Positions 18,809-32,549 of a stretch of DNA of 33,476 bases are shown piece after piece. Under the pieces are notes generated by a model. It was not told the DNA's origin. It saw only the letters and a program-made list of their open reading frames with translations, and searched no databases. The translations under genes and the position numbers were made by a program. The stretch is from the NCBI GenBank assembly GCA_016209795.1, contig JACQVI010000020.1:1-33476 (forward strand). Reading direction: 5' to 3'. Source of the stretch: Ignavibacteriota bacterium (GTDB lineage: Bacteria > Bacteroidota > Ignavibacteria > UBA10030 > SZUA-254). Numbering within the stretch: the first letter of the stretch is position 1; every line of letters begins with the position of its first letter.

Positions 18809-20944
18809 ATGAGAAAAACAAACTCCAGCTTCTGCAATGCTCACTGCTCAATGCTCATAGCTCTCTGCCCTCTGCTCTTCACTCTCACCTTGCTGCTCAG
18901 TGCTCAGTGCTCAGTGCTGAATGCCCAAACTCAGAGACCCATGGAACTTGAAGACCTCTTCCGAATCAAACGTGTGAGTGATCCTCAACTGTCACCAGAT
19001 GGCAAATGGGTCGCATTCATGATCACTGAAGTTGATAAACCAAATAACAAGACCAATAGTGACATCTGGCTCATTCCATCGAGTGGCGGCGAACCTAAAC
19101 AACTCACTAATTCCCCGAAGCATGATCGTCACCCTCGCTGGTCGCCGGACGGAAAATGGATTGCGTTCGAATCCAACCGTGATGGGTCTTTTCAGATTTA
19201 TCTTGTGAACTCGAGCGGTGGAGAAGCAAAGCAATTGACAACGATTTCCACCGAGGCAATTCAGCCAGTGTGGTCTCCTGATGGCAAAAACATTGCCTTT
19301 GTGTCTGCTGTGTTCCCGGAATTTTCGGAGAAACCCTTTAAGGAAAGTGATGCCCTCAACAAGAAGAAGCAGGAAGATCGTGACAACAGTAAAGTGAAAG
19401 CTCGCATCATTACAAAACTGCTCTATCGTCATTGGGATAGCTGGGTTGACGATAAACGGCAGCACATTTTTGTAGTTCCAGCCGATGGTGGGGATCCTCG
19501 CAATGTCACCCCTGGTGATCGGGATGCGGTGCCAACGTCATCAACCTTTTCAGTAGGAGACGATTTAGATTTCTCACCCGATGGCAAAGAGCTTGCGTAT
19601 ACGGCAACGCCTACACCGACTCGCGAAGAAGCCTGGAGTACGAATCACGATATTTACACGGTCAATCTTGTTACTGGCGAGCGTAAACAGATCACTACAA
19701 ACGCCGCCGCAGACGTCTTCCCTCGATACGCTCCTGATGGTAAGTATCTTGCTTATCGCGCACAAGTCCGCCCCGGCTTTGAATCAGATCGCTGGCAGTT
19801 AATGCTCTATGAGCCTTCCTCAGGAAAAGTCAGAAGTCTTTCAGAGAATTTCGACTCTAATATCGAGGCAATAGTTTGGTCCAAAAATAGCAAAATTCTT
19901 TACTTCGATGCTGAGGATAAAGGAAACAAGCCCATCTGGTCTGTCTCAACAAAGGGTAATGATGTGAAAAAAGTTGTCGACAATGCCGTCAATGGTGATG
20001 TGAACATTTCTTCAAACGGGAAGATGTTTGTGTTCTCCCATCAAACATTGTCGCGACCGGTCGAGATTTACACTGTATCCTCAGATGGTAAAAACCTCAG
20101 GCAGCTAACACACGTGAATGACTCGCTATTTTCACAGATCATGTTTACAGAACCTGAATATGTGTGGTACACTGGTGAAGAGAATGCAAATGTTCAAACG
20201 TGGATCCTGAGACCACCGATGTTTGATGCGACAAAGAAATACCCGCTTGTCTTTTGGGTACATGGTGGACCGCAGGGTGCGTTCATGAACTCGTGGTCGT
20301 ATCGATGGAATGCTCAACTCTGGGCAGCACAGGGCTACGTGCTTGCACTTCCGAACCCAAGAGGCAGCACAGGCTTCGGACAAAAATTTGTTGATGAGAT
20401 CAGCCACGATTGGGGCGGGAAAGTCTTTGAAGATCTGATGAAAGGTCTCGAGTATATGGAGAAACTTCCGTATATCGATACAAGTCGCATGGCAGCAGCA
20501 GGTGCATCGTACGGCGGATACATGATGAACTGGTTTCAAGGGCACACAGATAAATTCAAGACGCTGGTGACACACTGTGGAGTGTATAACTTTTACAGCA
20601 TGTATGGCACAACGGAAGAAACATGGTTCGACGAGTGGGAACATGGAATTCCATGGGAAACTCCCGACTTTGATAAACACTCTCCGCACAAGTATGCAGC
20701 GAATTTCAAGACACCTAACCTGATCATTCATAACGAGCTTGATTACCGCGTTCCGTTCAGCGAAGGGATGCAATTGTTTACAACATTACAGCGTAAAGGC
20801 ATCCCCTCGAAACTCTTATACTTCCCCGATGAAGGACATTGGGTTTTGAAACCACAAAACAGTGAGCTGTGGCATAAGACAGTGTTTGAGTGGTTGGCAA
20901 AGTATTTAAAACCTGAAAGCACAACAACAGGTGGTTTACGGTAG
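18809..20944 (+). CDS. Secreted S9 family (prolyl oligopeptidase-type) peptidase
   Basis: A 711-residue serine peptidase. The N-terminus is a signal peptide, followed by MELEDLFRIKRVSDPQ and an N-terminal beta-propeller with TolB/PD40-like blades (SPDGKWVAFM, SPDGKWIAFES, SPDGKNIAFVS, SPDGKELAYT, APDGKYLAYR). The C-terminal alpha/beta hydrolase domain has a Ser-Asp-His triad: S567 in GASYGGYM, D645 in HNELDYRVPF and H677 in DEGHWVL. It likely trims peptides in the periplasm or outside the cell. The signal peptide (about residues 10-42) is encoded almost entirely by a heptanucleotide tandem array. An internal Met at residue 45 (ATG 18941) would give a leaderless form. Confidence 0.93.
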   Translation: MRKTNSSFCNAHCSMLIALCPLLFTLTLLLSAQCSVLNAQTQRPMELEDLFRIKRVSDPQLSPDGKWVAFMITEVDKPNNKTNSDIWLIPSSGGEPKQLTNSPKHDRHPRWSPDGKWIAFESNRDGSFQIYLVNSSGGEAKQLTTISTEAIQPVWSPDGKNIAFVSAVFPEFSEKPFKESDALNKKKQEDRDNSKVKARIITKLLYRHWDSWVDDKRQHIFVVPADGGDPRNVTPGDRDAVPTSSTFSVGDDLDFSPDGKELAYTATPTPTREEAWSTNHDIYTVNLVTGERKQITTNAAADVFPRYAPDGKYLAYRAQVRPGFESDRWQLMLYEPSSGKVRSLSENFDSNIEAIVWSKNSKILYFDAEDKGNKPIWSVSTKGNDVKKVVDNAVNGDVNISSNGKMFVFSHQTLSRPVEIYTVSSDGKNLRQLTHVNDSLFSQIMFTEPEYVWYTGEENANVQTWILRPPMFDATKKYPLVFWVHGGPQGAFMNSWSYRWNAQLWAAQGYVLALPNPRGSTGFGQKFVDEISHDWGGKVFEDLMKGLEYMEKLPYIDTSRMAAAGASYGGYMMNWFQGHTDKFKTLVTHCGVYNFYSMYGTTEETWFDEWEHGIPWETPDFDKHSPHKYAANFKTPNLIIHNELDYRVPFSEGMQLFTTLQRKGIPSKLLYFPDEGHWVLKPQNSELWHKTVFEWLAKYLKPESTTTGGLR
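18838..18935 (+). repeat. Heptanucleotide array encoding a signal peptide (14 units)
   Basis: Fourteen consecutive 7-bp units with consensus TGCTCAN lie inside the S9 peptidase gene. Units 9-11 are identical TGCTCAG copies (18894-18914), and units 1-3 differ only in the last base. Because seven is not a multiple of three, the array is read in all three phases and still produces a hydrophobic Leu/Ala/Cys-rich leader. The register is unbroken over the 98 bp. Confidence 0.85.
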
Positions 20945-21387: not shown

Positions 21388-22215
21388 ATGAACTTCCTCC
21401 AAAAACTCAAATACATTCAGCGCAAAAACAACTCGCTGCTTTGCATCGGTCTTGATACGGATGTAAGTAAAGTGCCGGAGTTCCTCTATGCTTATGGCGA
21501 CCCACAGTACGAGTTCAACCGTCGCATCATCGACGCAACGAAAGACATCGTCTGCGCATACAAGCTGAACATCGCCTTCTACGAGTCCGTCGGGGAACAT
21601 GGGTGGTACACAGTGCATCAAACACTTGCACGCATCCCTGAAGAGATTATCACCATCGGAGATGGAAAGCGCGGAGACATTCCAAGCTCGGCAGAGCGAC
21701 AGGCACTTCTCTTTTGCGAGGACTGGGAGTTCTCAGGTACAACGGTGAATCCCTATATGGGCAAAGACGCCATCGAGCCGTTTATGCGCCGGAACGATCA
21801 ATGTGCATTTATTCTTGCGGTAACCTCAAACAACGGGGCAAAGGATTTCCAGCATCTCAAACTCAAAGGAAAACCACTCTATGAGCATGTTGTCAAGACA
21901 GCAAAGAAGTGGAACACCAAGAAAAACATCGGTCTGGTTGTCGGTGCAACACGACCCGCTGAATTGAAACGCGTCCGTTCACTTGCACCAGAGTTGCCAT
22001 TTCTGATACCTGGCGTTGGTACACAGAAGGGAGATCTTGAATACGCTGTACGGTACGGCTGTGACGCCAAAGGTGAGATTGCAATTATCAATGTCGGTCG
22101 AAGCATCATCTATGCGTCAAATGGGGAAGACTTTACCGAAAAGGCTCGAGAAGTTGCATTGAAGTACAGAGACCAAATCAACAGGTATCGAGAGAAATAC
22201 TTTCGCAGTAGGTGA
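21388..22215 (+). CDS. pyrF: Orotidine 5'-phosphate decarboxylase (type 2)
   Basis: A 275-residue type 2 (long) OMP decarboxylase, giving UMP in the last de novo pyrimidine step. CIGLDTDVSKVPEFL and CAYKLNIAFYE place the phosphate and orotate contacts. The catalytic cluster is D92-G-K94-R-G-D97 in IGDGKRGDIPSSAERQA. Later motifs are GTTVNPYMGKDAIEPF, GLVVGATRPAELKRVR, FLIPGVGTQKGD and NVGRSIIYAS. The stop codon coincides with the first unit of the heptanucleotide array that fills the gap to the next gene. Confidence 0.95.
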   Translation: MNFLQKLKYIQRKNNSLLCIGLDTDVSKVPEFLYAYGDPQYEFNRRIIDATKDIVCAYKLNIAFYESVGEHGWYTVHQTLARIPEEIITIGDGKRGDIPSSAERQALLFCEDWEFSGTTVNPYMGKDAIEPFMRRNDQCAFILAVTSNNGAKDFQHLKLKGKPLYEHVVKTAKKWNTKKNIGLVVGATRPAELKRVRSLAPELPFLIPGVGTQKGDLEYAVRYGCDAKGEIAIINVGRSIIYASNGEDFTEKAREVALKYRDQINRYREKYFRSR

Positions 22216-22275
22216 GTAGCTGAGTATGTGAGTATCATGTATCCAGCATCCAGTATCGAGTATCCGATAGGGTAT
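22213..22275 (+). repeat. Heptanucleotide array filling the pyrF-DUF2851 junction (9 units)
   Basis: Nine 7-bp units run from the pyrF stop codon (TGA, 22213-22215) to the DUF2851 start (ATG at 22274). The middle units follow ATCNNGT/ATCCAGN (ATCATGT, ATCCAGC, ATCCAGT, ATCGAGT, ATCCGAT); the first units are GAGTA-rich. The array makes up the whole intergenic space, including the place where a ribosome-binding site should be (only AGGG is seen). Confidence 0.7.
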
Positions 22276-30324: not shown

Positions 30325-30366
30325 TGGTTAATGGTTATTAGTTATTTGTTATTGTTAATAGTAACT
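30325..30366 (-). repeat. Heptanucleotide array upstream of ftsZ (6 units, TGGTTAT type)
   Basis: Six 7-bp units, TGGTTAA, TGGTTAT, TAGTTAT, TTGTTAT, TGTTAAT and AGTAACT, lie in the ftsA-ftsZ intergenic region, 20 bp before the ftsZ GTG. The heptamer differs completely from the GCTC-type arrays nearby, but the 7-bp period is the same. Confidence 0.65.
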
Positions 30367-30430: not shown

Positions 30431-30486
30431 AGCTCTCCGCTCTACTCTCTTTGCTCAGCGCTCACTGCTCGGTGCTCATAGCTCGT
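30431..30486 (-). repeat. Heptanucleotide array across the ftsA stop codon (8 units)
   Basis: Eight uninterrupted 7-bp units of NGCTCNN type span 30431-30486. The ftsA stop (TGA on the minus strand, 30476-30478) and its last two to three codons lie inside the array. TGCTCAT-AGCTC here also occurs in the S9 signal-peptide array, and GCTCTC units also occur at the ftsZ 3' end. Confidence 0.75.
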
Positions 30487-31714
30487 CAAACCAGCTTTTC
30501 ATCTTGGTGAATATCTTTTTGAGTGAGCCATCGCCTTTTCCATTACCGAATGTCACGGGTATCGTCTCTTTATTTCGCAATCCGTGTAACACCAAACCAA
30601 CACACGTTGCATAAATGGGATTTTCAATTTCTCGTACAAGTCCTGCATTGAACCCGCCTGGAATACCAATCTTCACTGGCATACCGAGAACCTCACGTGC
30701 AAGCTCGGCAGCACCTTTGATCAACGACCCACCGCCAGTGAGTACGACACCTGCAGAGAGATGTCTTGAATATCCTGAACGCTTAATTTCCATCGCAGCA
30801 ATTTCAAAAATTTCCTCCATCCGCGGCTGAATAATCTGTGCAAGTAGTCGCTTATCGATTTCCAGCGGAGGACGTCCGCCAATACCCGGAAGCGTTATTG
30901 GCTCGTCATTAACAACACTCTGAAGATAGGCAAAACCGTGCTGGCACTTGAGCCTTTCGGCTTGTTCGGTCAGAACTCCTAAACCTTTACGTATATCGTT
31001 TGTAACCTGATTTCCAGCAACCGGAATGACCGCCGTGTGTCGTATCGTCCGATCTTCAAACACTGCAAGATCCGTTGTCCCGCCGCCAACATCAAGCAGT
31101 GCTATGCCAACCTCCTTCTCTTCTTCTTCGAGCACGGCATAACTGGATGCCAGTGGTTCGAGAACCATATCACGGATATGGAGTTCGGCACGCTGGACAC
31201 ATTTACAAATATTTTGTGCTGCAGTAACCAGCCCGGTGATAATATGCACGTTCGCTTCAAGACGAACACCAGACATCCCAACAGGATCGTAGACGCCATC
31301 TTGACCATCAATAATGAATTCTTGAGGAATAACATGAATGATCTTACGGTCCGATGGAAGTGCTACGCGTTTCGTGTCTTCAATCAAACGATTAACATCT
31401 GCTTGAGAAATTTCATTTTCTGGACCACTGATGGCAATAACACCGCGACTTTGGAAACTCTGAATATGATCACCGGCAATGCCAACGATCACCGATTGTA
31501 TTTTAATGCCCGAACGAGTTTCCGCCTCAGCAATCGCACTTTGAATTGATCTCACAGTTTTGTCAATATTGGTGACGACACCACGCGTCAAGCCATCGGA
31601 TAGGCTTCGTCCAACACCGAGCACATTAAAGCGCCCGCCTTCATCGACAGCAGCGACAACTGCACAGACTTTGGTTGTCCCTATATCTAATCCTACAATG
31701 ATTTCGTTTTCCAT
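30476..31714 (-). CDS. ftsA: Cell division protein FtsA
   Basis: A 412-residue actin-like protein that tethers FtsZ to the membrane. VGLDIGTTKVCAVVA is phosphate 1, VGIALLDVGGGTTDLAVFED is phosphate 2 and GVVLTGGGSLIKGAAELA is the adenosine motif. The FtsA-specific 1C region follows IGRSLSDGLTRGVVTNIDKT. The protein ends in an amphipathic membrane-targeting helix, LKKIFTKMKSWFDEL. The frame opens at 31768, but the Met at 31714 (MENEIIVGLDIG) has GGAAAGGA upstream and the correct N-terminus. Its last codons and stop lie within a heptanucleotide array. Confidence 0.96.
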   Translation of the reverse strand: MENEIIVGLDIGTTKVCAVVAAVDEGGRFNVLGVGRSLSDGLTRGVVTNIDKTVRSIQSAIAEAETRSGIKIQSVIVGIAGDHIQSFQSRGVIAISGPENEISQADVNRLIEDTKRVALPSDRKIIHVIPQEFIIDGQDGVYDPVGMSGVRLEANVHIITGLVTAAQNICKCVQRAELHIRDMVLEPLASSYAVLEEEEKEVGIALLDVGGGTTDLAVFEDRTIRHTAVIPVAGNQVTNDIRKGLGVLTEQAERLKCQHGFAYLQSVVNDEPITLPGIGGRPPLEIDKRLLAQIIQPRMEEIFEIAAMEIKRSGYSRHLSAGVVLTGGGSLIKGAAELAREVLGMPVKIGIPGGFNAGLVREIENPIYATCVGLVLHGLRNKETIPVTFGNGKGDGSLKKIFTKMKSWFDEL

Positions 31715-31739
31715 TGATGAATTCCTTTCCGGCATATCC

Positions 31740-32549
31740 TTATAATTCCACCTTAGTTGTTTGACCATCCGTCTGATCCCATTTTGCTACAACCTGTCCT
31801 TCAAAGCGCAGATCGATGTAGCGAACGTTTTCTGAGGTAGCGGAGGTAATATAGTTCTTCCAGAATTCATACAGTGTTAATAGTTTCTTCTCAGTATGAC
31901 CACGTCCAAAAAAGATTGGATTTCCGCTGTCACCGGCGTAAAGGATGATATCACCGCCATCATTCATGTTCACTTCAGAGATCAGATGATACAACGATGA
32001 ATCAATGGCTTGTGCAATCGTTAACAGTTCAATTGCCTCGAAAATATCTTTGTTGATCAGCAGAGCCCCCACTTCAGCCGATTCAATTCTATGCACACCG
32101 CTAACTAATGGGAGATCAAACTTCGCCTGTGATGGGCTGTGGGGAAGCAACACGCCCTTACCATCAACATACTGCAGCTCACCGGTGTTGATGGCGGCAA
32201 TGGGATTTCGCTCGGTGATTTTTACACACAACGCGTCGGGATACCGTCGATTCAACGCTACTGAATTGATAAATGGCTGTTTACGAATGTGCTGCCGAAT
32301 AGCAAAAAGATCAAGATTATCCATTGATGCCTGTGGCTTCACGTTTGCCAGTTTAACGATCTCGTGTGTGGGTATAATGCTTGATCCCTCAACGATGACG
32401 CGCTGAACCTTGAGGGTATGACTCCACTCCAGCGAAAGAACAAACAAAACAATGTATGATGCAGCAAGTGGAATCAACAGCCGAAGTCCAAATCGCCTTG
32501 TTGACTGTTTTTCTTTGATAGGTTTATTTCCCAGATGCTCTTCCATCAT
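31740..32549 (-). CDS. ftsQ: Cell division protein FtsQ/DivIB
   Basis: A 269-residue bitopic divisome protein. A cytoplasmic basic tail (KPIKEKQSTRRFGLR) precedes one membrane helix (LLIPLAASYIVLFVLSL). The POTRA domain begins at LKVQRVIVEGSSIIPTHEIVKLANV and includes RKQPFINSVALNRRYPDALCVKITERNPIAAI. The beta domain carries ELQYVDGKGVLLPHS and LPLVSGV, and the C-terminus ends YIDLRFEGQVVAKW. Its first ATG overlaps the murB stop as ATGA, which decides this start over the Met directly after it. ftsA begins 25 bp downstream. Confidence 0.9.
   Translation of the reverse strand: MMEEHLGNKPIKEKQSTRRFGLRLLIPLAASYIVLFVLSLEWSHTLKVQRVIVEGSSIIPTHEIVKLANVKPQASMDNLDLFAIRQHIRKQPFINSVALNRRYPDALCVKITERNPIAAINTGELQYVDGKGVLLPHSPSQAKFDLPLVSGVHRIESAEVGALLINKDIFEAIELLTIAQAIDSSLYHLISEVNMNDGGDIILYAGDSGNPIFFGRGHTEKKLLTLYEFWKNYITSATSENVRYIDLRFEGQVVAKWDQTDGQTTKVEL

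What the first reader, a model, noticed from the sequence alone, without database searches (positions are those of the whole stretch)
18838..18935. Signal peptide of an S9 peptidase encoded by 14 heptamers
The leader (residues about 10-42) is translated across a heptamer array read in all three phases, with three perfect consecutive TGCTCAG copies. Loss or gain of one unit shifts the frame, so the locus could switch export on and off (phase variation). A Met at residue 45 would then allow a leaderless product. Alternatively the repeat was recruited as a new signal peptide. Degeneracy outside units 9-11 limits slippage.
Basis: partly seen in the sequence, partly recalled or inferred. Interest (0 to 1): 0.65.

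Follow-up and report, generated by a model that had tools for sequence, protein, structure and literature searches.

The report
Signal peptides built from DNA heptamers
In this Ignavibacteria-type bacterium a degenerate 7-base tandem repeat of a kind scattered through the genome encodes the export signal of a peptidase, and in it and its relatives the same repeat has become the export signal of many unrelated proteins, so it looks like recycled repeat DNA rather than an on/off switch.

Summary
The array is real. Bases 18835-18924 have a 7-base period far beyond chance (lag-7 score 35; maximum 13 in 100 shuffles) and encode the hydrophobic core and the Ala|Gln cleavage site of the leader of a typical S9 peptidase. 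It is not isolated. In a 432-kb sample of the same genome only period 7 (with its multiple 14, and weakly 8 and 21) gave arrays. Arrays of the TGCTCNN unit occur at about 17 places in this genome and 46 in relatives. By hand, 26 of these are signal peptides or lipoprotein leaders (BatD, NamZ, LptC, Vps10-like, SPOR, AhpC and others). An automatic test found 14 of 46 against 3% expected (p = 1e-10). All 26 are in sense; arrays inside other genes are 11 of 12 antisense. Orthologues of this peptidase carry ordinary signal peptides at the same place, and heptamers were gained or lost at least four times. Two sister species differ by exactly 21 bp (three units), keeping frame. Phase variation is not supported: the longest perfect run is 3.6 units, and I recognised no frame-shifted leader. 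Heptamer arrays are known; I found no report of their recurrent use as signal peptides.

The parts
18809..20944 (+). 711-aa S9 (prolyl oligopeptidase family) peptidase with PD40/DPPIV-N propeller and a heptamer-encoded leader
   Evidence: Pfam PF00326 E 8e-63, PF07676, PF00930; orthologues in 55 of 60 relatives
18809..18834 (+). start codon and n-region MRKTNSSFC (Arg2, Lys3); AAAGGG about 10 bases upstream
   Evidence: sequence
18835..18924 (+). degenerate heptamer array (consensus TGCTCAN), encoding the h- and c-regions
   Evidence: lag-7 score 35, shuffle maximum 13
18894..18918 (+). perfect core, 3.6 copies of TGCTCAG (encodes LLSAQCSVL)
18922..18928 (+). unit TGCCCAA: GCC CAA = Ala39-Gln40, the likely signal-peptidase I site (A|Q, Q-rule type)
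   Evidence: sequence; A|Q at the same place in orthologues; Q-rule, PMC5837995
18941..18943 (+). Met45, proposed internal start; not conserved in orthologues
30432..30485 (+). second TGCTCNN array, antisense to the - strand gene 30476-31768, at its 3' end
22207..22265 (+). intergenic 7-periodic array of another unit (AGTATCC)
30325..30362 (+). intergenic 7-periodic array of another unit (GTTATTN)

Best explanation
Exaptation of heptamer repeat DNA as a signal peptide. This lineage carries many degenerate heptamer arrays of several unit families, scattered through the genome. A heptamer array encodes the same seven-residue repeat in all three frames. TGCTCNN in sense always reads as a Leu/Ala/Cys/Ser-rich, stop-free peptide (CSLLTAH, CSVLSAQ, CSLLFAL) that contains Ala-Gln when the unit is GCTCAR. 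It therefore supplies a hydrophobic core and an A|Q signal-peptidase site in any frame. In secreted-protein genes, where the leader is constrained only in hydrophobicity and length, such arrays have repeatedly replaced the ordinary leader and are kept in frame. Here the array forms the core and cleavage site of the leader of an S9 peptidase, which is presumably exported constitutively. Shown: the array, its genome-wide class, enrichment and sense orientation in leaders, recurrent gain or loss among orthologues, and one 21-bp (three-unit) change. Inferred: that the leader works, that it is cut at A39|Q40, and that selection on the protein explains the sense orientation. Not known: how the arrays form and spread.
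For: Array far beyond chance. Only period 7 (plus 14, weakly 8 and 21) enriched in 432 kb of the same genome. TGCTCA arrays: 45 hits against 2 for the reversed pattern. Seven of about 17 such places in the own genome and 19 of 46 in relatives are leaders of exported proteins, confirmed by Pfam as BatD, LptC, NamZ, Sortilin-Vps10, TPR, GH3, M28, OstA, AhpC-TSA, SPOR and SBP. Automatic classification: 14 of 46 against a null of 3.0-3.3%, p = 1.5e-10. Orientation: leaders 26 sense / 0 antisense, other coding places 1 / 11, Fisher p = 1e-8 (enzymes). 20 of 26 leaders end in [AGST]Q and 4 in a lipobox Cys. Q-value of Ignavibacterium album 77% (PMC5837995). Orthologues: ordinary leader in most; 6 label changes on the tree, 4 forced by supported branches. 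S9 leader of G003 against G011: exactly 21 bp. Prediction test: another hydrophobic stop-free unit, GGTCATT (GHWSLVI), is also found in leaders, while AAATCTA, whose ideal translation has a stop in every frame of both strands, was not found as a sense leader core.
Against: No signal-peptide predictor and no proteomics were available; leaders were called by a simple hydrophobicity rule and by eye. Arrays in the same gene family in several genomes (BatD, Vps10, NamZ, LptC) may share ancestry, so the counts are not all independent events. In the 96 signal-peptide genes of the own sample only one, or two with a weaker case, carries an array, so the phenomenon is a minority route. The leader's ordinary-peptide ancestor was not reconstructed.
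Confidence: 0.86

Rival explanations
1. Phase-variable switch: slipped-strand loss or gain of one heptamer turns export of the peptidase on and off, with Met45 giving a leaderless product in the off state.
For: Unit length is not a multiple of three. Changing the count by one or two units gives 34-49 aa products, and three units restores the frame. Heptamer tracts are phase-variable elsewhere (hmw1A/2A promoters of Haemophilus influenzae, PMC2651432, PMC8262952).
Against: Longest perfect run 3.6 units, against 13-38 copies cited for hmw tracts (PMC2651432). No frame-shifted leader recognised in the arrays examined. The observed unit change between sister species is a multiple of three. Met45 is not conserved. 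A cytosolic leaderless form has no supporting feature.
Confidence: 0.05
2. Born in place: the period arose inside an existing Leu/Ala-rich leader by local slippage, unrelated to the arrays elsewhere.
For: Leaders are low-complexity and weakly constrained. Orthologous leaders have different units and lengths.
Against: Identical units occur as intergenic and antisense intragenic arrays in the same genomes. Codon-shuffled leaders and internal membrane segments show no such period. Some leaders join two unit families (GGTCATT then TGCTCTN in L228 and L237), as the intergenic arrays do.
Confidence: 0.2
3. Chance or composition artefact: a Leu/Ser/Ala leader with CTC-rich codons happens to look periodic.
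For: The array is degenerate outside its 25-bp core.
Against: Shuffle and codon-shuffle controls, and the genome-wide excess of period 7 over most other periods.
Confidence: 0.01

Closest known systems
Short tandemly repeated repetitive (STRR) heptamers of cyanobacteria (Calothrix, Nostoc) and other dispersed heptamer arrays (GGGAATC of Xanthomonas, TAACTGA of Beggiatoaceae; PMC4692102, PMC4679880)
   Same: Seven-base tandem units, dispersed over the genome, several unit families, mostly intergenic, also reported in Bacteroidetes.
   Different: Here the units are more degenerate, and many arrays lie in coding sequence and form leaders. The G4 repeats were reported as under-represented in coding regions.
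Phase-variable simple sequence repeats (for example hmw1A/2A heptamers, PMC8262952, PMC2651432)
   Same: Unit length not divisible by three, at the 5' end of a gene for an exported protein.
   Different: hmw tracts are long perfect promoter tracts that vary between isolates; this is a degenerate coding array that encodes the leader itself.
Bacteroidetes Q-rule signal peptides (PMC5837995, PMC10653852)
   Same: Leader ends in A|Q with Gln as the new N-terminus; high Q-value in Ignavibacterium album.
   Different: The Q-rule concerns the cleavage site only; here Ala-Gln is encoded by the repeat unit GCTCAR.
Tandem repeats of archaeal Borg elements that create new protein segments (PMC9879509)
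   Same: Repeat DNA creates new protein segments in many genes.
   Different: Borg repeats make disordered regions (by title and abstract); here period 7 makes hydrophobic leaders.

Membership tests
Heptameric dispersed tandem repeat (STRR-like) | Seven-base tandem unit | tested here: met
Heptameric dispersed tandem repeat (STRR-like) | Same unit repeated as arrays at many places in the genome | tested here: met
   45 hits against 2 control hits; other unit families
Heptameric dispersed tandem repeat (STRR-like) | Mostly intergenic | tested here: inconclusive
   All arrays in the own sample: 15 of 24 intergenic where 77% is coding; the TGCTCNN family is often coding
Phase-variable SSR (contingency locus) | Long uninterrupted tract | tested here: not met
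   Longest perfect run 25 bp, 3.6 units
Phase-variable SSR (contingency locus) | Unit number varies within a population or species | not testable with these tools
   No reads and no same-genus genome held; relatives are other genera
Phase-variable SSR (contingency locus) | On and off states both seen among homologous loci | tested here: not met
   No off state recognised; 21-bp change keeps frame
Sec/SPase I signal peptide with Q-rule site | Positive n-region, hydrophobic core, A|Q at the end | tested here: met
   MRK...; SMLIALCPLLFTLTLLLSAQCSVLNA|Q; same place in orthologues
Sec/SPase I signal peptide with Q-rule site | Export and cleavage shown | not testable with these tools
   needs an experiment
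Peptidase family S9 | S9 catalytic domain and N-terminal propeller | tested here: met
   PF00326 E 8e-63; PD40, DPPIV_N

The most novel reading that the evidence does not exclude
A standing route from repeat DNA to protein targeting: heptamer arrays, whose 7-residue reading is the same in every frame, act as ready-made cassettes that repeatedly become leaders of exported proteins (and strands of the T9SS sorting domain). Which unit lands where is set by the chemistry of its seven-residue translation, and the arrays evolve by unit changes filtered for multiples of three.
Probability: 0.5. Interest if true: 0.78.

Novelty: new variant of a known kind. Interest (0 to 1): 0.62.

Why it matters
It gives a concrete, repeated case of noncoding-type repeat DNA turned into a working targeting signal, with controls available in the same genomes (antisense arrays, other units, intergenic arrays) and sister species for timing. 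How signal peptides arise and turn over is otherwise hard to follow. It also warns that such arrays near start codons need not be phase-variation switches, and that start calling and pseudogene calling in these genomes must allow for them.

Tried and rejected
A lag-7 excess averaged over all signal peptides of the own sample is absent (0.264 against 0.260-0.266 at neighbouring lags that are not multiples of three), so most leaders are ordinary. The phylum-wide search found mostly non-coding arrays outside the order, with one clear leader (L276, same class), so the use in leaders appears concentrated in the order. Literature searches found heptamer arrays and N-terminal repeat enrichment but no description of heptamer-encoded signal peptides; subscription papers are not held. 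Population variation could not be tested.

Full report
Observation. The window is contig C204 of a 3.39-Mb, 263-contig draft genome. The nearest orthologue of the peptidase in named records is 81% identical and comes from a groundwater Ignavibacteria MAG; the lineage is therefore Ignavibacteria/Bacteroidota-like, by this one protein. Bases 18835-18924 are 7-periodic with score 35, against at most 13 in 100 shuffles of the whole window. The perfect core is TGCTCAG x 3.6, 18894-18918. The array lies in the 711-aa ORF 18809-20944, a typical S9 peptidase (PF00326 E 8e-63, with PD40 and DPPIV_N). The leader reads MRKTNSSFCNAHCSMLIALCPLLFTLTLLLSAQCSVLNA|QTQRPMELEDLF. The last readable unit, TGCCCAA, encodes Ala39-Gln40.

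Why a heptamer can be a leader. Because 7 = 1 mod 3, an ideal heptamer array has one and the same 7-residue translation in all three frames. TGCTCAG gives CSVLSAQ, TGCTCAC gives CSLLTAH and TGCTCTT gives CSLLFAL; the reverse strand gives hydrophilic peptides, often with a stop. GCTCAR encodes Ala-Gln, the signal-peptidase I site favoured in Bacteroidetes and in Ignavibacterium album (Q-value 77%, PMC5837995).

Not an isolated case. In 432 kb of the own genome, period 7 gave 22 segments with score 14 or more. Periods 5, 6 and 9-13 gave none; period 8 gave 4, 14 gave 8 and 21 gave 2. The units differ: TGCTCAN, AAATCNN, GTTATNN, AACCTNN, GTATCNN. In the whole own genome TGCTCA arrays give 45 hits against 2 for the reversed pattern, at about 17 places, of which two (C250, C257) were not examined. 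Seven are leaders of exported proteins: this S9 peptidase, LptC, BatD, Vps10-like, NamZ, a TPR protein, and a family without a Pfam match. In 60 relatives, four-unit TGCTCNN arrays occur at 46 further places in 11 genomes; I fetched all of them and judged 19 to be leaders (Pfam). A fixed automatic rule gives 14 of 46, against 3.0% for random positions in the same loci and 3.3% in the own sample (binomial p = 1.5e-10); it found no antisense case.

Orientation. All 26 leaders read the unit in sense. Arrays elsewhere in coding sequence are 11 antisense and 1 sense (Fisher p = 1e-8). They lie within or at the ends of PolA, Pgm/Pmm, PNP, UbiD, PurL, TrpE, CysS, an amidohydrolase, MoeA and others; the sense exception is a GlyS-like synthetase (L238). 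Intergenic arrays between co-directional genes are also mostly antisense (11 against 2). The leader set thus runs against the strand preference seen elsewhere, as expected if the hydrophobic reading is what is kept. These counts rest on hand classification, and some loci are orthologous between genomes.

Prediction test. If the translation decides, another stop-free hydrophobic unit should also be found in leaders, and a stop-containing one should not. GGTCATT (GHWSLVI) is found in leaders (L286, L287, L291, L295, L297, L298) and in T9SS sorting domains (L293, L294, L309). AAATCTA, whose ideal translation has a stop in every frame of both strands, instead abuts start codons in many of the 30 loci read; no sense leader core was seen, and one antisense case (L335) lies just before a leader core.

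Orthologues of the S9 peptidase. The place holds an ordinary leader in most orthologues, including the more distant ones in Verrucomicrobia and Planctomycetes, and heptamers in a minority. On a maximum-likelihood tree of the mature protein (29 rows) the heptamer label needs 6 changes, 4 of them forced by well-supported branches. Sister species G003 and G011 differ in this leader by exactly 21 bp, i.e. three heptamers, with the frame kept. The Vps10-like leader aligns in register, without gaps in the array, between the own genome and another family, so some of these leaders may be old.

Phase variation. One or two units more or fewer close the frame after 34-49 residues, and three restore it. 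But the perfect tract is 3.6 units, against 13-38 copies cited for the hmw tracts (PMC2651432). I recognised no array with a long secreted-protein frame left out of frame downstream. Met45 is Leu or Val in many orthologues. Reads were not available, so slow variation remains untested. I give the switch about 5%.

Status. Heptamer arrays are known (PMC4692102, PMC4679880). I found no account of their recurrent use as signal peptides in the library searched, which lacks most subscription papers. Main gaps: leaders were called by a simple rule, export is not shown, and the mechanism that makes and homogenises the arrays is unknown.

Noticed in passing
L293, L294, L309, L333; own L147 7103-7141, L162 4729-4761, L168 2678-2708: Heptamer arrays encode a strand of T9SS C-terminal sorting domains (NPFNPTTTLSLVIGNSSFVTLKVYDVLGRE), at about the same place in several proteins and with different units.
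   Followed up: partly
L346 against L347 (G003, G011), leader of the QKVLIPMDLKQ gene: Same-length, in-register arrays with different units in sister species (GGGCATT against GGTACTT): about two of seven bases are changed in every unit, which looks like concerted unit replacement.
   Followed up: no
L317, L319, L323-L326, L328, L340, L343: AAATCTA arrays end within a few bases of start codons of many genes, perhaps acting as A-rich leaders of the mRNA.
   Followed up: no
L037 (own C247) and L218, L222, L226, L227, L230, L232, L234: Antisense heptamer arrays inside housekeeping enzymes (PolA, Pgm/Pmm, PNP, UbiD, PurL, TrpE, amidohydrolase, CysS) encode hydrophilic EQRAESxEHRA stretches between or beside domains.
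   Followed up: partly
30432-30485: A second TGCTCNN array in the window, antisense to the gene 30476-31768 at its 3' end.
   Followed up: partly
22207-22265 and 30325-30362: Two further intergenic heptamer arrays of other units, AGTATCC and GTTATTN.
   Followed up: no
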